DNA from: a virus
Direction: 5' to 3' (one strand)
Virus record (IMG/VR): IMGVR_UViG_3300031857_024895
Coordinates: 1-27,495 of that record
Length of the DNA: 27,495 nucleotides
The notes under the pieces are model-generated. The model made no database searches and was not told where the DNA came from. It was given only the letters and a program-made list of their open reading frames with translations. A program made the position numbers and the translations under genes. Below are positions 5,323 through 11,816 of this stretch, piece after piece (the stretch's first letter is position 1; each line of letters starts with the position of its first letter).

Positions 5323-5336
5323 AAGGAGAAAAAGTG

Positions 5337-6023
5337 ATGAAATGGAAAAATGATTTAATAAAAGATATTAGATATCTTACACCTTGGGATGATAGTGATG
5401 GAGATCCAAGAATAGAATTTAGGGGTTGGGCTGAGGTAACTGAAGCGAATAGAATGGTCTTAAGAGATAGATTTTTGAGAGTTTCTGAAAATTGTTCCGC
5501 TATACTTGAAATCGGAGTCAATAGAAATGGAGAAAATTCATTTACACAAGTGTTGTTGAAAAATAAGAAAAAAGAAACTATCTATATTGGAATAGATATA
5601 GATGATAGAGAATATCTAAACAATGAAGAAGAAAATATTCATGTTATAAGAGGTGATAGTTCCAACTATGAAGAAAATATGAAAATAATAAATCAAATTT
5701 TTGAAAAATGTGGAGCAACTAGAAAAGAATTTGACTTTATTTTCATCGACGGGTGGCACAGCGTTAATCAATGTTTAAAAGATTGGGAATACACAAACAT
5801 TTTAGGAAAAAATGGAATTGTTGGACTTCATGATACAGCATATCATCCTGGTCCAAAAGTATTCATGAGAAATTTAAATAAAGATGAATGGGCTGTTGAA
5901 GCAAACGTGATTGAAACTTCTAACGATTGGGGTATTGGTTTTGCATGGAAAAAAGATACCAATAATTGGAATCCAGTTCCCGAAGGATATGAATGGAAAG
6001 TAGATCCTCCAAATATGTATTAA
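5337..6023 (+). CDS. Class I SAM-dependent methyltransferase-like protein
   Basis: The 228-residue protein has a Rossmann methyltransferase pattern: motif I at ILEIGVNRNGENSF, an acidic strand end YIGIDIDD for the SAM ribose, HVIRGDSSNY, then DFIFIDGWHS and a GIVGLHDTAYHPGP segment. This order resembles the Methyltransf_24-like group found in phage and polysaccharide-modifying loci; the substrate is unknown. ATG 5337 and GTG 5334 are adjacent candidates served by the same AAGGAG at 5323-5328; I prefer ATG. The gene is visibly more AT-rich, with many AAA, ATA and GAA codons, than the nrd and pstS genes on either side. This could mark a later insertion between two metabolic blocks, but that is inference. 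Confidence 0.7.
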   Translation: MKWKNDLIKDIRYLTPWDDSDGDPRIEFRGWAEVTEANRMVLRDRFLRVSENCSAILEIGVNRNGENSFTQVLLKNKKKETIYIGIDIDDREYLNNEEENIHVIRGDSSNYEENMKIINQIFEKCGATRKEFDFIFIDGWHSVNQCLKDWEYTNILGKNGIVGLHDTAYHPGPKVFMRNLNKDEWAVEANVIETSNDWGIGFAWKKDTNNWNPVPEGYEWKVDPPNMY

Positions 6024-6030
6024 TTGATTT

Positions 6031-6060
6031 ATGACAATCCGATGACGGTTTTGTTACAAT
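6031..6060 (+). promoter_or_regulatory. pstS promoter with candidate Pho box
   Basis: A promoter-like pair, ATGACA (6031-6036), an 18-base spacer and TACAAT (6055-6060), lies in the only sizeable gap before pstS. Overlapping the -35 is ATGACAATCCGATGACGG (6031-6048): two ATGAC-type heptamers exactly 11 bases apart. Read on the other strand these resemble the PhoB box repeat CTGTCAT-N4-CTGTCAT (six of seven matches in each half). The inverted orientation relative to pstS is not the textbook one, and PhoB control is inference. The transcript would start near 6067 and carry a leader of about 65 bases. Confidence 0.5.
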
Positions 6061-6097
6061 CCCGTTTAAGGATCATGATTTCATAGATAAGTGTGAT

Positions 6098-6115
6098 ATT
6101 GTGCAAAGGCACAAT
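6098..6115 (+). promoter_or_regulatory. Stem-loop in the pstS leader
   Basis: ATTGTGC (6098-6104), loop AAAG and GCACAAT (6109-6115) form a perfect 7-bp stem with a four-base loop, ending 6 bases before the ribosome-binding site TAGGAG (6121-6126). No T-run follows, so it is not a standard terminator. It may stabilise the mRNA or tune translation. Confidence 0.45.
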
Positions 6116-6131
6116 TCTTATAGGAGAAATC

Positions 6132-7154
6132 ATGAGAAAGTTACTTTTATCTTTATTGTTATTTACAGGAGTCGCATCCGCAGCAGAATTAACTGGCGCT
6201 GGTGCGACTTTTCCATTTCCAATCTATGCTAAGTGGGCAGAAGCATATAAAGCATCCACTGGCATTGGTCTGAATTATCAATCAATCGGTTCTGGTGGTG
6301 GTATCAAACAAATCAAAGCAAAAACAGTTGACTTTGGTGCAAGTGATATGCCATTGAAGCCTGAAGAATTAGACAAAGAAGGTCTAGTGCAATTTCCAGC
6401 AGTAATTGGCGGTGTAGTACCAGTATTCAATCTTGACGGTGTAGCAGCAGGTCAATTAAAATTAACACCAGAAGTTATTGCAAACATTCATCTTGGTAAA
6501 ATCACAAAGTGGAACGATAAAGCAATTGTTGATTTGAATCCTGGCGTCAATCTACCAGCATTAGCAATCACAGTTGTTCATCGTGCAGATGGTTCAGGCA
6601 CTACATTTATTTGGACAAACTTTTTAGGTAAAGCAAACGCTGATTTTGCAAAAACTGTTGGCGAAGGCACAGCAGTAAAATGGCCAGTTGGTGTAGGTGG
6701 TAAAGGTAATGAAGGTGTTGCTGTTCAAGTACAAAGAATCAAAGGTGCATTTGGCTATGTAGAATATGCATATGCAAAAAGAAATAAAATTGCACACGCA
6801 CAATTAAAAAATCGTGATGGTGTTTTTGTACAACCAAGTGACGATTCATTCAAAGCCGCAGCAGCAAACGCAGATTGGGCTAATGCACCAGGAATGTATT
6901 TGTTGCTCACATGGCAAACAGGTAAAGAAGCATGGCCAGCAACAGGCGCAAGTTTCATTCTCATGCACAAACAACAAGCAGATAGTTTGACAGGTCGTGC
7001 AGTTTTGAAATTCTTTGATTGGAGTTGGAAGAATGGTGCCAAGATGAGTGAAGAACTAGAATATGTTCATTTACCACAATCAGTTATTAAATTAAATCAG
7101 GACAATTGGAAAAAAGACTTAAAAGGTCCTGACAACAACCCAATTTGGAAATAA
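6132..7154 (+). CDS. pstS: Phosphate-binding periplasmic protein PstS
   Basis: The 340-residue preprotein has a signal peptide (about residues 1-17, cut after VASA) and then a mature protein closely following E. coli PstS. Phosphate-contacting segments are all visible: GAGATFP, SIGSGGGIKQI, DFGASDMPL and HRADGSGTTF. PstS binds inorganic phosphate in the periplasm and hands it to the PstCAB permease. No permease gene is visible here, so the phage protein would work with the host transporter. The true start is ATG 6132 behind TAGGAG at 6121-6126; an upstream in-frame TTG would bury the signal peptide. The next gene, a porin, begins 9 bases after its stop. The sequence is of the proteobacterial PstS type. 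Confidence 0.93.
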   Translation: MRKLLLSLLLFTGVASAAELTGAGATFPFPIYAKWAEAYKASTGIGLNYQSIGSGGGIKQIKAKTVDFGASDMPLKPEELDKEGLVQFPAVIGGVVPVFNLDGVAAGQLKLTPEVIANIHLGKITKWNDKAIVDLNPGVNLPALAITVVHRADGSGTTFIWTNFLGKANADFAKTVGEGTAVKWPVGVGGKGNEGVAVQVQRIKGAFGYVEYAYAKRNKIAHAQLKNRDGVFVQPSDDSFKAAAANADWANAPGMYLLLTWQTGKEAWPATGASFILMHKQQADSLTGRAVLKFFDWSWKNGAKMSEELEYVHLPQSVIKLNQDNWKKDLKGPDNNPIWK

Positions 7155-7163
7155 GGATAAATT

Positions 7164-8570
7164 ATGAAACTATTTAAAAAATTATCTATCGTAGTTGCAC
7201 TTGCAGCAGTAATTCCTGCATATGCTGATGAGTATAAAGATACATTGAATATTCTAAGAGAGAAGAATATAATCACTCAAAAAGAATATGAATCAAAACT
7301 CAATGCATATGAAGAAAAAGAAGAAAACAAAAAGTTTGCAGAACAAAGAATCGACAAAGATGTTAGTGATTCGGTCAAATACAGACAAGCAAGAGCAAAC
7401 GATGGTTCAGTCACAGAAAATGGAATCGGACTCAAAAGCAAAGATGGAAACAATACGGCACAGTTTACAGGTCGAATTCATATGGACTATCGCCAATACA
7501 CACCAGATTATGGTGTCGGCCAAACCACGGATTCGTATCAAAACTTAGCCGAAGTTCGCCGTGCAAGATTTGGTGTTCGTGGACAATTTGCAAAAGACTT
7601 CAAATATCAATTGTTAGCAAACTTTGGTGCAAGTGATGGCTTTAGTTCTACATCATCAACAGCAGATGAGATGTGGGTAAACTATGCAGCAAATCCAGAA
7701 ATGCAATTTCAATTTGGCTTATTCAAGATGCCATTTAGTCTTGAACAAATGACAAGTTCAAACAATCTAGATTTTATGGAACGTAGTTTGATTGGTCAGA
7801 ATGATACTGAATTTATTCCTGCAAAAGAAACTGGTTTCATGTTACATGGTGTGCCAAAACCTGGCCTTACATATGCTATAGCAGCAAGTAGAGGCAAATC
7901 CAATAAGAGCGCAGAGTTCGATGGACTTGATTATATTGGTCGTGTAACAACTAATATTGCTGAACTAACAGGCAGCAAAGCATACACTGCACACTTGGGT
8001 GCAGCATACAGCACAGGTGAAATTAAAAGTGGCGTTGCACCAGCCAGTGGTAGAACAGAATCTCGTATGCAGTCTGGTTGGTTTACAGGTTCCGCATTGA
8101 GTGGTGCTACTACAAGAACACGCCAAGGATTAGAAGCAGCGTTTGCATATAACGGTTTCAAAGTTCAAGGCGAACAGTTCAATTTTAAATATGATGCTGC
8201 AACAGGTAGTGACCAAGAAATCAAAGGGTACTATGTACAAGCAGTTTATAATTTAACTGGCGAATCACATGCATACAAAGATGGTGCGTTTGGTTGGATT
8301 AAACCAAATAATCCAATCGACAAAGGTGGTCGTGGTGCGTGGCAGGTTGGTGTACGTATGAGTGAGTTTGATGCAAGTGATGTATCCGTTGCAACAGGCA
8401 AGTCAAATCGTGCTACTGCTATGACATACGGTCTAACTTGGTTTTGCACTGACAATCTACGTTTCATGCTCAACTACGTAGATACAAAGTTTGATGCATT
8501 AGTTGGTAGTTCTGGTAGTCGTGTAAATGGTGAAAAAGCAATTATGTTTAGAAGTCAATTAAGTTTCTAA
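7164..8570 (+). CDS. Phosphate-selective porin O/P family outer-membrane protein
   Basis: The 468-residue protein has a signal peptide (about 1-21, cut after PAYA) and a charged helical N-terminal stretch (22-75) with a periplasmic coiled-coil look. A beta-barrel porin follows, with alternating aromatic strands: TGRIHMDYRQY, RRARFGVRGQF, FQFGLFKMPFSLEQMTSS, FMERSLIG, FGWIKPNNP, WQVGVRMSEFD. The last residue is Phe, as expected for BAM-assembled porins. These landmarks fit the OprP/OprO family and resemble betaproteobacterial members. It is probably co-transcribed with pstS (9-base gap, TAAGGA upstream), and a terminator closes the unit. The likely role is to increase phosphate passage through the outer membrane of the infected cell. 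Anion selectivity is inferred from family and neighbour. Confidence 0.87.
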   Translation: MKLFKKLSIVVALAAVIPAYADEYKDTLNILREKNIITQKEYESKLNAYEEKEENKKFAEQRIDKDVSDSVKYRQARANDGSVTENGIGLKSKDGNNTAQFTGRIHMDYRQYTPDYGVGQTTDSYQNLAEVRRARFGVRGQFAKDFKYQLLANFGASDGFSSTSSTADEMWVNYAANPEMQFQFGLFKMPFSLEQMTSSNNLDFMERSLIGQNDTEFIPAKETGFMLHGVPKPGLTYAIAASRGKSNKSAEFDGLDYIGRVTTNIAELTGSKAYTAHLGAAYSTGEIKSGVAPASGRTESRMQSGWFTGSALSGATTRTRQGLEAAFAYNGFKVQGEQFNFKYDAATGSDQEIKGYYVQAVYNLTGESHAYKDGAFGWIKPNNPIDKGGRGAWQVGVRMSEFDASDVSVATGKSNRATAMTYGLTWFCTDNLRFMLNYVDTKFDALVGSSGSRVNGEKAIMFRSQLSF

Positions 8571-8587
8571 AATTTTTTTGTTATATT

Positions 8588-8613
8588 AAAAGCCTCGTAA
8601 GAGGCTTTTTTTT
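8588..8613 (+). terminator. Rho-independent terminator after pstS-porin
   Basis: AAAAGCCTC (8588-8596), loop GTAA (8597-8600) and GAGGCTTTT (8601-8609) form a perfect 9-bp stem running into an uninterrupted T-tract that ends at 8613. It lies 17 bases after the porin stop and separates the phosphate unit from the Fe-S carrier gene. Confidence 0.92.
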
Positions 8614-8616
8614 CGT

Positions 8617-8623
8617 CTAAATA
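8617..8623 (+). promoter_or_regulatory. Candidate phage late promoter motif CTAAATA
   Basis: CTAAATA directly follows the terminator and lies 19 bases before the start at 8643. It resembles the T4 late promoter element TATAAATA and its variants in related phages. The same CTAAATA occurs on the other strand before the virion genes (19182-19190 region). This is a short motif, so the call is tentative. Confidence 0.35.
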
Positions 8624-8642
8624 AAGATCGAAGGAGAAATCT

Positions 8643-8963
8643 ATGATCACAATGACTGAACTCGCATCTCGCAAAACTTTAAACTCTTTAAACAAAAGAG
8701 GAAAAGGATTAGGTATTAAGGTTGGTGTTAGAACCACAGGTTGCAGTGGTTTGGCCTATACCTTAGAATATGTTGATAGTGTATCGGATACAGATACTAT
8801 ATACGAATCTAACGGTGTTAAAATTTTTGTTGACCCAAAACATATTCCTTATCTGAACGGAATGGAAATAGATTGGAAAAGAAATGGACTCAATGAAGGT
8901 TTTGATTTTATAAATTCTTTAGAAAAGAATCGATGTGGTTGTGGTGAAAGTTTTAATATTTAA
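8643..8963 (+). CDS. A-type iron-sulfur cluster carrier (IscA/ErpA/HesB family)
   Basis: The 106-residue protein has the length and three cysteines of A-type Fe-S carriers: C34 in TTGCSGLAY and C98 and C100 in RCGCGESF near the C-terminus. Such proteins receive or donate [2Fe-2S]/[4Fe-4S] clusters or iron to client proteins in the cytoplasm. The start ATG 8643 follows GAAGGAG (8630-8636). It is the first gene after the pstS-porin terminator and is followed after 9 bases by an exported nuclease. The phage client is not evident; the NrdB di-iron centre or host Fe-S enzymes are possibilities. The family call is firm, but IscA, ErpA and SufA cannot be told apart here. Confidence 0.88.
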   Translation: MITMTELASRKTLNSLNKRGKGLGIKVGVRTTGCSGLAYTLEYVDSVSDTDTIYESNGVKIFVDPKHIPYLNGMEIDWKRNGLNEGFDFINSLEKNRCGCGESFNI

Positions 8964-8972
8964 GGAGAAAGA

Positions 8973-9422
8973 ATGAAATTAACAAAAATACTTTTAATTG
9001 GTCTATTATCTTTCGCTGGTATAGGAAATGTTTATGCTGACAAAACAGCAAAAGGTGTAACGTATGATGCACAAATTGTACGGGTAAATGATGGTGATAC
9101 TGTAGTGATTGCAGCACCCTTTTTACCTTTGCCATTAAAACCTGAATTAGCAGTTCGTATCTATGGTGTAGATACGCCAGAAAAAGGCCATAGAGCTCAA
9201 TGTCCAAGTGAAGATCAACGTGGTCAAGCAGCAACTGTGTTTACTAAAAATCTAGTTGCAAAGTCCATTAAACGACAAGTCACACTCTATGGTTGGGATA
9301 AATTTGGTGGTCGTGTCTTGGGTGATATGATTCTAGATGGTCAAAGTCTCCGTAGTATGTTGATTCAAAACGGTTTCGCTCGGGAATATTTTGGTGAAGC
9401 CAAACAATCTTGGTGTCAATAA
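8973..9422 (+). CDS. Exported thermonuclease-like (SNase) nuclease
   Basis: The 149-residue protein has a signal peptide (about 1-22, cut after VYA) and a staphylococcal-nuclease fold. Active-site residues match S. aureus nuclease by motif: D42 (VNDGDTVVI), R62, D67, T68 and E70 (VRIYGVDTPE), and R114 (DKFGGRV). Two cysteines in the mature part, C77 and C148, could form a disulfide outside the cytoplasm. It should cut DNA or RNA in the periplasm or outside the cell. Possible roles are degrading superinfecting DNA or releasing nucleotides from external DNA; neither is shown. AAGGAG lies 6 bases before the start. Its TAA overlaps the next ATG by one base. Confidence 0.9.
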   Translation: MKLTKILLIGLLSFAGIGNVYADKTAKGVTYDAQIVRVNDGDTVVIAAPFLPLPLKPELAVRIYGVDTPEKGHRAQCPSEDQRGQAATVFTKNLVAKSIKRQVTLYGWDKFGGRVLGDMILDGQSLRSMLIQNGFAREYFGEAKQSWCQ

Positions 9423-9571
9423 TGGCTTCGTTGAAACACACTTGTGGGGCATGTTCCTCAGAGTTTACAATTAAATATGATGAAAGTAAATGTGAAGATG
9501 ATCCACACTACTGTCCATTTTGCGGTGAATATTTAATTGAAACTGAGGATTTTGGTGATGATGACGAATGA
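9422..9571 (+). CDS. Zinc-ribbon small protein (49 aa)
   Basis: The start overlaps the nuclease stop (TAATG) and the end overlaps the next start (ATGA), so it is embedded in the operon. The product has two CxxC knuckles, C8-x2-C11 (TCGACS) and C31-x2-C34 (HYCPFCGEYL), and an acidic tail. This is a zinc-ribbon layout found in many small phage proteins that may bind nucleic acid or polymerase. No specific function can be given. Confidence 0.65.
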   Translation: MASLKHTCGACSSEFTIKYDESKCEDDPHYCPFCGEYLIETEDFGDDDE

Positions 9572-9972
9572 CCTGGTATTTTCATAATACAGGTGAAGAA
9601 TTTACCGAAGAAAATATAGACGGCCATTTTGGGTTTGTATATCTAATCACACATACTCAAAGTGGTCGTAAATATATTGGTAAAAAATTCTTCACCAAAT
9701 CTAAGACTACACAAGTTAAAGGTAAGAAAAAGAAAACCCGAGTATCGTCTGATTGGATGACATACTGGGGTTCTAATTTATTACTACAAGAAGAAGTTAA
9801 AAAAAATGGTGAAGATCAATACGTAAGAGAGATACTTCACCTCTGTAAAACTAAATCAGAATTGTCTTATTACGAAACGTGGGAGATATTCTCTCGCCAC
9901 GCACTATTGAATGAATCTTACTACAATCAATGGGTTTCTTGTAAGATTACAAAAAAACATTTACTTAAGTAA
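9568..9972 (+). CDS. GIY-YIG-like endonuclease
   Basis: The 134-residue protein has the two signature strands of the GIY-YIG fold in a variant form: GFVYLITHT (22-30) and GRKYIGKKFF (33-42). Basic residues follow (KGKKKKTR), then SDWMTYWGS and a late glutamate in SYYETWEIF that could be the metal ligand. Stand-alone proteins of this type are frequent in T4-like phages and may be homing or repair nucleases; no DNA-binding domain or nearby intron was seen. It starts in ATGA overlap with the zinc-ribbon gene. Its 3' end overlaps the convergent gene on the minus strand by 12 bases in a perfect palindrome. Confidence 0.7.
   Translation: MTWYFHNTGEEFTEENIDGHFGFVYLITHTQSGRKYIGKKFFTKSKTTQVKGKKKKTRVSSDWMTYWGSNLLLQEEVKKNGEDQYVREILHLCKTKSELSYYETWEIFSRHALLNESYYNQWVSCKITKKHLLK
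9961..9972. repeat. Palindromic tail-to-tail gene junction TTACTTAAGTAA
   Basis: This 12-base sequence is its own reverse complement. It encodes the last codons and stop (Leu-Leu-Lys-stop) of both convergent genes, one on each strand. It could fold only into a weak 4-bp hairpin, followed by TTTT on the plus side and a T-run beyond an ATG trinucleotide on the minus side. It may act as a weak bidirectional terminator. Confidence 0.7.
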
Positions 9973-10263
9973 TTTTGTATTGTTTTCAGGATTCATTGAC
10001 AACATATTGGAGAATATCTTCTGAGTTTCTTCATTAGATTTCACCATCTCATTCCTAAAACTTTCAACAGCTGCACCAGTTTGACGAGACATTCCTGAAT
10101 TTTCAATCAGTAACATAGGAATAAAAGTCATAGCACAATTCCATTCTTCAACTTGCTTACCTGTATTGATATCATAACCTTCAACTTTAGTAAACCATGC
10201 ACATTTAAACTGTACACATTCTTCTTTCATTATAGGACAAAATGTTCCTGGTTTTAATTGCAT
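9961..10263 (-). CDS. Hypothetical Cys-rich phage protein (100 aa)
   Basis: The start is ATG at 10263, preceded on the minus strand by AAAGGAG with an 8-base spacer; a longer frame upstream has no such site. The product carries a compact cysteine pattern near the N-terminus (FCPIMKEEC, FKCAWF) and EEWNCAM, four cysteines in all, which could hold zinc or an Fe-S cluster. A helical region with SRQTGAAVESFRNEMVK follows. I recognise this as a recurring T4-like/aquatic phage family of unknown function. It is the last gene of the leftward virion-side transcript and ends convergently with the GIY-YIG-like gene. Confidence 0.65.
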   Translation of the reverse strand: MQLKPGTFCPIMKEECVQFKCAWFTKVEGYDINTGKQVEEWNCAMTFIPMLLIENSGMSRQTGAAVESFRNEMVKSNEETQKIFSNMLSMNPENNTKLLK

Positions 10264-10276
10264 AATATAATCTCCT

Positions 10277-11437
10277 TTAAACAAACCAAGTAATAATAGA
10301 ATATCTAGTGCCTTTGATTACAGGCATGATTTCGTGTGGATACATAAAATTTGAAGGGAACATGATTACTGATCCTTTCTTTAAATTATAAATCAACTCT
10401 CTATCAAAGAAAGCAAATTCTCCACCTCCAAAATCATCATTTAGTGCGAAAGAACAAGACACTGCTCTAGGATGTTTTTTGTATGAATCTGTATGTTGCC
10501 GGTAAAATTGCCCTACCTCATACTTTAATAAATCATATCCAGAATCTTCTTCTATTTGACTTAGTGGGAAAATATCATTATATTTTCTAATGACCTCATT
10601 TGCAACTTTATAAAGTCTATCATCTAAAAGTTTTCTTATTTCGGGATTTTTTAAAATTGTATTTTCGTGTGAAATAGGAATTGTATTTACATTTCTAGCA
10701 TTTAAATTCATTTCCTCGTATCCTACTCCAGCAAGACACCAATTATCATCATTCTTATACTCATTTATAATTTCATCACATAGTGAGTAGGGAATAATAT
10801 CTTCATAAATTTGAATGAAATCTGATATTTTATTTTTGGAGTTTATTTTAACTGGTGTTGTTTTTTCTTGTTTCACACTTTCTTCTTTTTTGATTGGAGA
10901 ATCTTTTTTCTTATCAAAATAAGTATAAGCTTTATCACCTCTACTTCTTACATAATGTAAAAATACCTGAACATATTCTTTACCTAAAAATTGATTTCTC
11001 CAATGATCAGCAACACATCCCAAATAAAGCATTGCATCACCTGGTTTTAGAATCAATTCAACTTCATTACCATCAGGAGTTTCAATATAAATTGGCCAAT
11101 CTTCATCACCATCTAAATGTACAGTTAAACTTATTTCGCAAGCATCTCTATCCCTATGTCTTTCCAAAACACTACCATCTTTATACACTCTAGCATAACT
11201 ATATGTTGGTAAAACGGTTTCACCTATAATTGTGCTCACCGTTGGTACTTTATCACATAGCATTTCTAAAAAGTCTATGAAATTATATTCCGCTGAAGAA
11301 TTTGGAGCTTGATTGTCTCCTTGAACCTCATTTTGTTTACAGTGACTTTTGAAGTTGGAAGCCATGACTTTTGCAGCGGCTTCACTAATGAAGTTGGGAA
11401 TATAGATATAATTATTTTCAGTTAATGATTTATTCAT
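10277..11437 (-). CDS. Tandem double-domain 2OG-Fe(II) dioxygenase
   Basis: The protein has 386 residues from ATG 11437 (AAAGTGATTATATT upstream, a degenerate form of the site before the next gene). It contains two double-stranded beta-helix oxygenase domains joined by a charged, lysine-rich linker (about 175-205). Domain 1 (about 10-170) has an HRD triad start at H94/D96 and a distal H145 (VADHWRN). Domain 2 (about 210-386) is prolyl-4-hydroxylase-like with QHTD (H315, D317), MYPHEI (H368) and GTRYS (R378, the 2-oxoglutarate-binding Arg). Both metal triads look complete. Such enzymes hydroxylate proteins, small molecules or DNA bases. The position directly after the tail-fibre genes suggests modification of a virion or host surface protein, but that is inference. 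Confidence 0.8.
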   Translation of the reverse strand: MNKSLTENNYIYIPNFISEAAAKVMASNFKSHCKQNEVQGDNQAPNSSAEYNFIDFLEMLCDKVPTVSTIIGETVLPTYSYARVYKDGSVLERHRDRDACEISLTVHLDGDEDWPIYIETPDGNEVELILKPGDAMLYLGCVADHWRNQFLGKEYVQVFLHYVRSRGDKAYTYFDKKKDSPIKKEESVKQEKTTPVKINSKNKISDFIQIYEDIIPYSLCDEIINEYKNDDNWCLAGVGYEEMNLNARNVNTIPISHENTILKNPEIRKLLDDRLYKVANEVIRKYNDIFPLSQIEEDSGYDLLKYEVGQFYRQHTDSYKKHPRAVSCSFALNDDFGGGEFAFFDRELIYNLKKGSVIMFPSNFMYPHEIMPVIKGTRYSIITWFV

Positions 11438-11456
11438 AATATAATCACTTTTTAAT

Positions 11457-11816
11457 TTAATTGTTTTCTGCTGCAGCTGCGGCTTCATCAGCAGCATCTG
11501 ATGCCGCTAGTGCAGCTTGTTTTATATTATATGCTTGCAACCATACATCATAACAGTTGATAGCCCATTGTGGTAATTCAGTTATATTTTCATTAGGATC
11601 GGTCGATCTAAATTCTAACCAACCAGATCCTTGGCCATATTGCAATCCATTTAGATGGGAATTTTGTTTATCTGGCCAAATGGGATTATTCCATTGTAAT
11701 GCATGTATATTATCTGGTATTCCACATTGAGATAAGTCTAACTCTGATAAACCTTCTTGGTCTGTAACGACAATACCATCAACAGGAATTACTACTAATT
11801 TATGTGTTTGAATCAT
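11457..11816 (-). CDS. Tail-fibre-associated small protein (119 aa)
   Basis: Starts at ATG 11816 with GAAAGG upstream. The N-terminal part resembles phage tail-fibre assembly or structural proteins, with the pattern DNIHALQWN followed by a GxGWLEF segment. The C-terminus is an alanine-rich helix (AALAASDAADEAAAAAENN) likely to form a coiled coil. It lies directly downstream of three tail-collar proteins on the same strand, which fits a chaperone or minor structural role. No enzyme motif is visible. The name is based on context and weak resemblance. Confidence 0.55.
   Translation of the reverse strand: MIQTHKLVVIPVDGIVVTDQEGLSELDLSQCGIPDNIHALQWNNPIWPDKQNSHLNGLQYGQGSGWLEFRSTDPNENITELPQWAINCYDVWLQAYNIKQAALAASDAADEAAAAAENN

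What the first reader, a model, noticed from the sequence alone, without database searches (positions are those of the whole stretch)
6031..8613. Two-step phosphate-uptake cassette: phage pstS plus an OprP/O-family porin under one promoter and one terminator
Seen: a PstS with intact ligand segments and signal peptide, then 9 bases later a 468-residue porin with signal peptide and terminal Phe, closed by a 9-bp terminator. Known: pstS occurs in aquatic phages, and the host Pst system uses an outer-membrane porin in many Gram-negatives. Inference: this phage carries both the outer-membrane and periplasmic steps and relies on host PstCAB. A phage rebuilding the host outer membrane during infection is unusual. 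The porin might also alter phage receptor availability.
Basis: partly seen in the sequence, partly recalled or inferred. Interest (0 to 1): 0.75.

Follow-up and report, generated by a model that had tools for sequence, protein, structure and literature searches.

The report
Phage phosphate-uptake gene pair with porin
A family of uncultured T4-like viruses carries, as one unit, an outer-membrane pore and a periplasmic phosphate-catching protein, placed next to what look like binding sites for the host's own phosphate-starvation switch, so the virus can probably help a starved bacterium take up phosphate during infection.

Summary
In detail: pstS (6132-7154), 9 bases, a Porin_O_P porin (7164-8570), then a terminator-like hairpin, in a T4-like phage contig. 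It is not a chimera. The porin lies directly behind pstS in 87 of 87 viral porin loci and is present behind pstS in 78 of 80 viral pstS loci; 42 distinct, uninterrupted porins show purifying selection. Carriers include contigs with two classes of T4 capsid protein. Viral porins and viral PstS each form one clade, next to the same few Burkholderiales genomes. There the two genes are separate units: porin beside ppx-phoX-lipid-remodelling genes, pstS between ppk and phoBR. The viral bicistron therefore looks assembled from a host phosphate-starvation region. A matrix from 59 E. coli PhoB sites puts the best site of the whole locus upstream of pstS in 28 of 41 distinct viral loci, the window's included; in the window's group it faces backwards. 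None of 23 viral contigs has PstC. Best reading: a PhoB-linked outer-membrane-plus-periplasm phosphate module feeding host PstCAB. Selectivity and regulation are inferred: OprP's arginine-ladder stretch is missing and three of eight central residues differ. Precedents: cyanophage pstS; marine viral glnK-amtB-ompL.

The parts
6030..6058 (-). two overlapping PhoB-like sites (three half-sites at 11-base spacing), on the strand opposite to pstS
   Evidence: E. coli PhoB matrix scores 18.4 (6041-6058) and 13.9 (6030-6047), the two best of the whole 27,495-base window on both strands; 0 of 12,300 random 110-base segments of the viral loci reached the score of the upper site (identical upstream in L002)
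6132..7154 (+). pstS: periplasmic phosphate-binding protein, 340 aa, signal peptide about residues 1-17
   Evidence: ligand residues
7164..8570 (+). Porin_O_P outer-membrane porin, 468 aa, signal peptide about residues 1-21, terminal Phe
   Evidence: Pfam 3e-50; PDB sequence hits OprO/OprP; model with 16 long strands closest to OprO/OprP
7278..7397 (+). predicted helical stretch of the porin before the barrel (residues 39-78)
   Evidence: AlphaFold2 model, H39-78, pLDDT under 50 from residue 58 on
7728..7823 (+). constriction loop L3 of the porin (residues 189-220), with L8 the most conserved of the extracellular loops
   Evidence: mean column entropy 0.31 against 0.39 for strands and 0.59-0.88 for L1, L2, L4-L7
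8588..8613 (+). intrinsic-terminator-like hairpin, 9 pairs, followed by T run

Best explanation
It is a phage auxiliary metabolic cassette that supplies the two envelope steps of high-affinity phosphate uptake that lie outside the inner membrane. The porin (OprP/OprO family) lets phosphate, or small phosphate-containing anions, through the host outer membrane. The phage PstS catches phosphate in the periplasm and hands it to the host's PstCAB permease. Sites for the host regulator PhoB upstream of pstS would tie expression to phosphate starvation, so the module is made when phosphate for phage DNA is short. Shown: gene content, intactness, linkage, purifying selection, family and fold, common bacterial source group with a phosphate-starvation neighbourhood, PhoB-like sites, absence of PstC from the contigs searched. 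Inferred: phosphate passage through the porin, PstS docking on host PstCAB, PhoB binding and its sign, co-transcription, benefit to the phage.
For: Pair in 87 of 87 viral porin loci; porin present in 78 of 80 best viral PstS loci (within 100 bases in 71 of the 74 new ones). 42 distinct porins without internal stops. Median dN/dS 0.13 for the porin and 0.09 for PstS. Two score classes of T4 major capsid protein among the carriers. PstC in 0 of 23 contigs, one PstS-type match in each of 23. Trees: viral porins one clade (SH-aLRT 99) beside L082-L087; viral PstS one clade (100) within a clade (99) whose only bacteria are L213-L217, drawn from the genomes of L082, L083, L086, L087 and L121. In that bacterial group the porin neighbours ppx, phoX and olsB/plcP/glycosyltransferase-like genes in 5 of 6 informative loci; pstS neighbours ppk in 5 of 5, and phoR-phoB follow in both regions read through. 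A more distant bacterium has porin-pstS-pstC-pstA-pstB in a row. PhoB-like sites in 36 of 41 distinct upstreams at score 12 or more, against 0.7% of random segments per strand; best of the locus in 28 of 41. Fold: OprP/OprO clearly above other porins (E 9e-22 against 2e-13; Z 31 against 25).
Against: Members of Porin_O_P need not carry phosphate: ExtI and FmdC are cited for selenite/tellurite and for amides/urea (PMC5877670, passages). Of the eight central OprP residues named there, Y62, K121 and K126 are replaced (R135, Q195, N200), and the conserved ones are mostly conserved across 60 distant bacterial porins too. The OprP stretch with R218/R220/R222 (numbers recalled) falls in a gap of the phage porin. 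The mature porin has 52 Arg+Lys and 53 Asp+Glu, so no net positive charge. In the window's group the PhoB site points away from pstS, unlike activating E. coli sites as recalled. PMC10976474 found predicted Pho boxes in a phage unreliable. Five of 41 upstreams score under 12 (L020, L024, L038, L057, L072). The upstreams are related within groups, so they are few independent cases. The model has mean pLDDT 63. Two of 80 viral pstS loci lack the porin.
Confidence: 0.72

Rival explanations
1. The porin serves phosphorus supply but for another form: polyphosphate, pyrophosphate or organic phosphates released by host PhoX and Ppx, with PstS collecting the phosphate afterwards (OprO-like rather than OprP-like). 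This overlaps with the best explanation, which leaves the exact phosphate form open.
For: The bacterial sister porins sit beside ppx and phoX; OprO is as close as OprP in sequence and fold; the two positions changed in the OprO mutant entry 4rjx (62 and 114) are R135 and K188 here, so neither type.
Against: No substrate can be read from sequence; direct linkage is with PstS, which binds orthophosphate.
Confidence: 0.3
2. The porin mainly changes the host surface, for example to mask or replace a receptor or to exclude other phages, and its place behind pstS is a convenience of expression.
For: Phage-encoded porins with such a role are known from lambdoid phage PA-2 (recalled, not found in the library); loops L1, L2, L4-L7 vary more than strands.
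Against: Association with pstS in 87 of 87 and 78 of 80 loci across different gene contexts; L3 and L8 are more conserved than the strands; PhoB-like sites upstream; the bacterial sister genes sit among phosphate genes.
Confidence: 0.07
3. The porin carries some other anion or small solute (as ExtI or FmdC), and the cassette is a general nutrient-uptake aid.
For: Family membership alone does not fix the substrate (PMC5877670); OprP's ladder stretch is missing.
Against: Tight coupling to a specific phosphate binder in viruses, and to phosphate-starvation genes in the bacterial sister clade but seldom in distant relatives (PhoX near 1 of 68 distant porin loci, many with short flanks).
Confidence: 0.1
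4. The cassette is host DNA joined to phage DNA by misassembly or contamination.
For: The gene products resemble bacterial proteins, and the porin has no relative in 50,697 phage records.
Against: Same arrangement in contigs from many different datasets (by the numbers in the contig names), flanked by phage genes on both sides in 10 window-type contigs; viral clades distinct from bacteria; bicistron order not seen in the related bacteria.
Confidence: 0.01

Closest known systems
PstS auxiliary metabolic gene of T4-like cyanophages (e.g. P-SSM2)
   Same: phage-borne pstS in T4-like phages, expected to work with host PstCAB and to be tied to host PhoBR (pstS of P-SSM2 is under PhoBR, as stated in PMC10976474, passages seen)
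   Different: cyanophage PstS is at most about 45% identical in the 60 of 90 rows seen while bacterial PstS reaches 74-76%; no porin relative in the phage collection; PhoB-like sites here fit the E. coli type, while that paper uses a different cyanobacterial consensus
Viral glnK-amtB-ompL cassette of marine oxygen-minimum-zone viruses (PMC8115048, one section read)
   Same: virus contigs carrying a nutrient-uptake gene set with an outer-membrane porin directly behind it and a predicted promoter upstream
   Different: ammonium channel and its regulator, OmpL-like porin of unknown substrate behind a predicted terminator, association known from Flavobacteriales; here phosphate binder plus Porin_O_P, Burkholderiales-like source, and the bicistron is not seen in the related bacteria
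[quoted passage not shown]
   Same: family, 16-strand fold, R34, D94, S124, S125 and R133 equivalents
   Different: about 23-25% identity over the structural alignment; no ladder stretch; Y62, Y114, K121 and K126 equivalents replaced; helical stretch predicted before the barrel
Bacterial porin-pstS-pstC-pstA-pstB gene run (L279)
   Same: Porin_O_P gene directly beside pstS
   Different: porin comes first, permease genes are present, only 32% identity to the phage porin

Membership tests
Porin_O_P (PF07396, OprP/OprO family) | profile match above the curated cut-off | tested here: met
   171.8 bits against cut-off 20.9
Porin_O_P (PF07396, OprP/OprO family) | 16-stranded beta barrel with constriction loop, signal peptide, terminal Phe | tested here: met
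   16 long strands (plus one 4-residue stretch before them) in the model, OprP/OprO best by Foldseek and VIA-align; mean pLDDT only 63
OprP-type phosphate-specific channel | central residues R34, Y62, D94, K121, S124, S125, K126, R133 (list from PMC5877670) | tested here: not met
   5 of 8 identical (R104, D168, S198, S199, R207); Y62, K121, K126 are R135, Q195, N200 (K126 read from the alignment and the invariant list)
OprP-type phosphate-specific channel | arginine ladder | tested here: not met
   R59/R60 equivalents present, but the stretch with R218/R220/R222 (numbers recalled) aligns to a gap
OprP-type phosphate-specific channel | measured phosphate selectivity | not testable with these tools
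   needs bilayer recordings
PstS phosphate-binding protein | equivalog profile above cut-off | tested here: met
   418 bits against 339 (NF008171) and 373 against 205 (TIGR00975)
PstS phosphate-binding protein | phosphate-contact residues | tested here: met
   T26, F27, S54, D72, R151, D153, S155, G156, T157 (E. coli numbering recalled)
Complete Pst transporter | permease and ATPase genes in the same genome | tested here: inconclusive
   PstC 0 of 23 viral contigs, whose completeness is not reported; PstA and PstB not searched
Pho regulon (host PhoB control) | direct-repeat PhoB site upstream | tested here: met
   36 of 41 distinct upstreams score 12 or more; window site 18.2
Pho regulon (host PhoB control) | site in activating orientation and spacing to the -10 element | tested here: inconclusive
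   sense orientation in the second group, antisense in the window's group; spacing only inspected by eye
Pho regulon (host PhoB control) | PhoB binding and phosphate-dependent transcription | not testable with these tools
   needs gel shift and transcript data

The most novel reading that the evidence does not exclude
Several T4-like phage lineages built an envelope-spanning phosphate relay (outer-membrane pore plus periplasmic binder) by joining two host genes that the related bacteria keep as separate units, put it beside sites for the host's PhoB, and thereby rebuild the outer membrane of starved hosts during infection; in one group PhoB acts through a reversed site, a different wiring from the host's.
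Probability: 0.45. Interest if true: 0.75.

Novelty: new variant of a known kind. Interest (0 to 1): 0.62.

Why it matters
Phosphate is a main limit on phage production in fresh and marine water, and pstS has been the standard example of a phage gene for it (recalled). Here the phage also supplies the outer-membrane step, linked to the host's starvation sensor, in contigs with two classes of T4 capsid protein. That makes testable whether outer-membrane permeability, and not only periplasmic capture, limits phage yield, and whether lytic phages remodel the outer membrane of living hosts. It also gives a defined porin clade, linked to phosphate genes in bacteria and in viruses, in which the OprP arginine-ladder rule for phosphate can be tested.

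Tried and rejected
Chimeric assembly: rejected. General porin: rejected; OprP/OprO stand well above other porins. Cyanophage origin of PstS: rejected, identity low against 74-76% to Burkholderiales. A single-protein scan of bacterial genomes found nothing; the profile scan found 50 loci. My first simple Pho-box score could not tell the strands apart because the repeat is partly palindromic, so it was replaced by a matrix from published ChIP-seq sites. Bacterial cassette taken over whole: not supported in the close relatives (pstS and porin about 11 kb apart in L277, on different contigs in G029), though a distant porin-pst gene run exists. Literature: no paper reporting a phosphate-type porin in phages was found with searches of an open-licence library (subscription journals mostly missing); the hits were judged from listings and, for a few, from passages. 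PMC10987575, PMC12195039 and PMC6802176 hold no mention of porin in their main text. VIA-align is a second look at Foldseek's list; families absent from it are not excluded.

Not done: PstA, PstB and PhoU searches in the viral contigs; host assignment by CRISPR spacers; metatranscriptome mapping; a search of the metagenome collection; a test of whether the porin and pstS trees agree inside the viruses; Pho sites upstream of the porins of L085 and L121.

Full report
What is there. The window is a T4-like phage contig: primase, ThyX, NrdA, NrdB, an IscA-like protein, SegE, PhoH and tail fibre genes; its record is a virus record of 27,495 bases. Between a methyltransferase gene and the IscA-like gene lie pstS (6132-7154) and, nine bases later, a 468-residue Porin_O_P gene (7164-8570), then a nine-pair hairpin with a T run. 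PstS meets the equivalog cut-offs and keeps the phosphate-contact residues. The porin matches only Porin_O_P in Pfam and only OprO/OprP in the PDB by sequence; it has no PHROG and no relative in 50,697 phage records.

It recurs. A scan of viral contigs with the porin gave 109 relatives, of which 80 loci were held. A second scan with a 39-sequence profile (39 of the 42 distinct sequences) gave 131, of which 80 were kept and 7 were new. All 87 carry pstS directly upstream on the same strand (recount 92), with a gap of 9 bases in 67 of the 81 loci measured, the window's own copy included. Those 81 loci hold 42 distinct porins, none with an internal stop. A scan with PstS gave 293 relatives. Of the 80 held, 78 have the porin (72 of 74 new loci, 6 of 6 already held); the exceptions are L175 and L212, and in L198 only part of the porin matches, starting 230 bases on. 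Many of these loci are the same contigs or close copies, so the counts are not independent events. Contexts differ: in the window's group the pair follows nrdB, with a methyltransferase gene between in the window; in the second group it lies near other genes, such as a phage GroEL in L064. Among 23 contigs searched, 12 have the T4 capsid protein Gp23, in two score classes (473-501 and 330-332 bits). All 23 have one PstS-type match and none has PstC; completeness of these contigs is not reported, so absence is not proof.

Selection. Among 32 representative loci, median pairwise dN/dS is 0.128 for the porin (474 of 496 pairs, dS between 0.05 and 2) and 0.092 for PstS (469 of 496); synonymous distances are large, so these are rough. 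In 39 porins, the constriction loop L3 and loop L8 (mean entropy 0.31 each) are more conserved than the strands (0.39), and the other extracellular loops are moderately variable (0.59-0.88). That fits a working channel and gives no sign of strong diversifying selection on a receptor.

Fold and pore. The AlphaFold2 model (mean pLDDT 63, pTM 0.61) has 16 long strands and a helical stretch before them. OprP and OprO are the best matches by Foldseek (E 9e-22 and 2e-20; next family 2e-13) and by VIA-align (Z 31.1-31.3, 346-352 residues aligned, rmsd 3.2-4.3; next Z 25.1). PMC5877670 (passages seen) lists the central OprP phosphate residues as D94, Y62, S124, S125, K121, K126, R34 and R133. By the alignment, five of eight are identical in the phage porin. 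Ten mapped columns (R34, R59, R60, Y62, D94, Y114, K121, S124, S125 and R133 equivalents) were counted, and all are invariant in the 39 viral porins, including the replacements R135, K188 and Q195. The same residues occur in the six closest bacterial porins and mostly in 60 distant ones, so they mark the family, not phosphate. The OprP stretch with several ladder arginines is absent (residue numbers recalled). Membership in Porin_O_P is met; membership in the OprP-type phosphate-specific channels is not, on these two tested features. That lowers 'it is an OprP', not 'it works like one'.

Bacterial relatives. A profile scan of genomes gave 50 loci. The closest six (47-54% identity) are MAGs titled Burkholderiaceae, Oxalobacteraceae, Burkholderiales and Polynucleobacter. 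In the tree of 108 porins (42 viral, 66 bacterial) the viral porins form one clade (SH-aLRT 99) beside L082-L087, and the joint clade has 100; L121 was too short for the tree. The PstS tree puts the viral proteins in one clade (100) inside a clade (99) whose only bacteria are L213-L217; L081, labelled bacteria in that run, is the window's own copy. L213-L217 come from the genomes of L121, L087, L083, L082 and L086. In that search 6 of 10 genomes had a PstS match: the genome of L084 and three distant ones had none, that of L085 only a fragment. So both proteins point to the same bacterial group. In it, the porin is divergent from ppx and next to phoX and genes resembling olsB, plcP and a glycolipid glycosyltransferase in 5 of 6 informative loci (L083, L084, L085, L087, L121; not L086; L082 begins near the porin). 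pstS neighbours ppk in 5 of 5 loci, and phoR and phoB follow it in both regions read through, L277 and L278. In L277 the porin and pstS are about 11 kb apart. Among 68 distant porin loci, PhoX is near 1, Ppx near 3 and PhoB near 7 (many of these loci have short flanks). One distant bacterium has porin-pstS-pstC-pstA-pstB in a row beside arsJ, and a second (L280) has a pstS fragment at the contig end beside its porin. In 399 genomes of the order drawn evenly, 60 have a porin match and 265 a PstS match.

Control. From 59 PhoB sites printed in PMC10294691 (passages seen) I built a matrix. In 41 distinct 110-base upstreams the best site on either strand scores at least 8 in 40, and at least 12 in 36, against 3.3% and 0.7% of 12,300 random segments of the same loci on one strand. 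In the window the two best sites of the whole sequence are these two, at 6041-6058 (18.4) and 6030-6047 (13.9). Over the loci, the best site of the entire locus lies in the pstS upstream in 28 of 41 and among the best three in 34 of 41. The weakest is L072 (rank 50). In the window's group the site lies on the opposite strand; in the second group it lies on the pstS strand, with a TAAATA-like element about 9-10 bases further on (inspected by eye in the output). The upstreams are related within each group, so the number of independent cases is small, but two groups carry sites in different sequence and orientation. Of five closest bacterial porin upstreams examined, four have a TGTCA-type repeat on the porin strand (scores 10.4-12.6; the fifth, L082, has only 90 bases before the gene), and both pstS upstreams examined do (15.6 and 18.0). 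PMC10976474 warns that predicted Pho boxes in a phage genome were not reliable without binding tests.

Mechanism and doubts. The most economical account is a phosphate module that adds the outer-membrane and periplasmic steps to host PstCAB and answers to host PhoB. Steps not shown are phosphate flux through the porin, delivery by phage PstS to host PstCAB, PhoB binding, the meaning of the reversed site, co-transcription, and benefit. The main rival is passage of polyphosphate or organic phosphates.

Known or new. Phage pstS is known, and its link to PhoBR in a cyanophage is stated in PMC10976474. A viral porin behind a nutrient transporter is known from marine glnK-amtB-ompL viruses (PMC8115048, one section read). 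I found no report of a phosphate-type porin in phages in the searches listed under Tried and rejected. I call it a new variant of a known kind.

Noticed in passing
window 5334-11497 and L050: L050 is near-identical to the window in some neighbours (NrdB and IscA 100% aa) but the cassette is only 89% (PstS) and 82% (porin), and the methyltransferase gene before pstS is missing; this suggests allele exchange at the cassette.
   Followed up: partly
L279:4980-14016: A bacterial Porin_O_P-pstS-pstC-pstA-pstB gene run lies divergent from arsJ and an arsenic-type GAPDH, hinting at phosphate/arsenate uptake through such a porin.
   Followed up: partly
L277:2152-18346: A Burkholderiaceae phosphate-starvation island: porin, ppx, phoX, olsB-like, plcP-like, glycosyltransferase, ppk, pstS, phoR, phoB in one 16-kb stretch.
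   Followed up: partly
L064:11855-15288: Downstream of the cassette in a second-group phage lie a phage GroEL and an S-adenosylhomocysteine hydrolase.
   Followed up: no
second-group loci (L041, L045, L064, L038, L040, L060, L062, L069, L135, L136, L059, L134): xTAAATA words are commoner on the coding strand than on the other strand in the 80 bases before ORFs (CTAAATA 10 against 1, ATAAATA 19 against 7, TTAAATA 24 against 10 among 256 ORFs), like a T4-type late promoter.
   Followed up: no
L175:3825-4844 and L212:5001-6020: The only two of 80 viral pstS loci without the porin; in L175 the nrd context is kept.
   Followed up: no
window 9568-9972: PHROG 447 calls this family NAD synthetase, but Pfam identifies a SegE GIY-YIG endonuclease.
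   Followed up: no
window 8643-9422: Behind the cassette sit an IscA/HesB-like iron-sulphur protein and a staphylococcal-nuclease-like protein with a signal-peptide-like start, kept together in the closest relatives.
   Followed up: no
phage records MG065691 and MG065686 (hits H1, H2): Two Campylobacter phage records hold a PstS gene 52% identical to the window's, above the cyanophage ones; records without annotation, possibly bacterial DNA.
   Followed up: no
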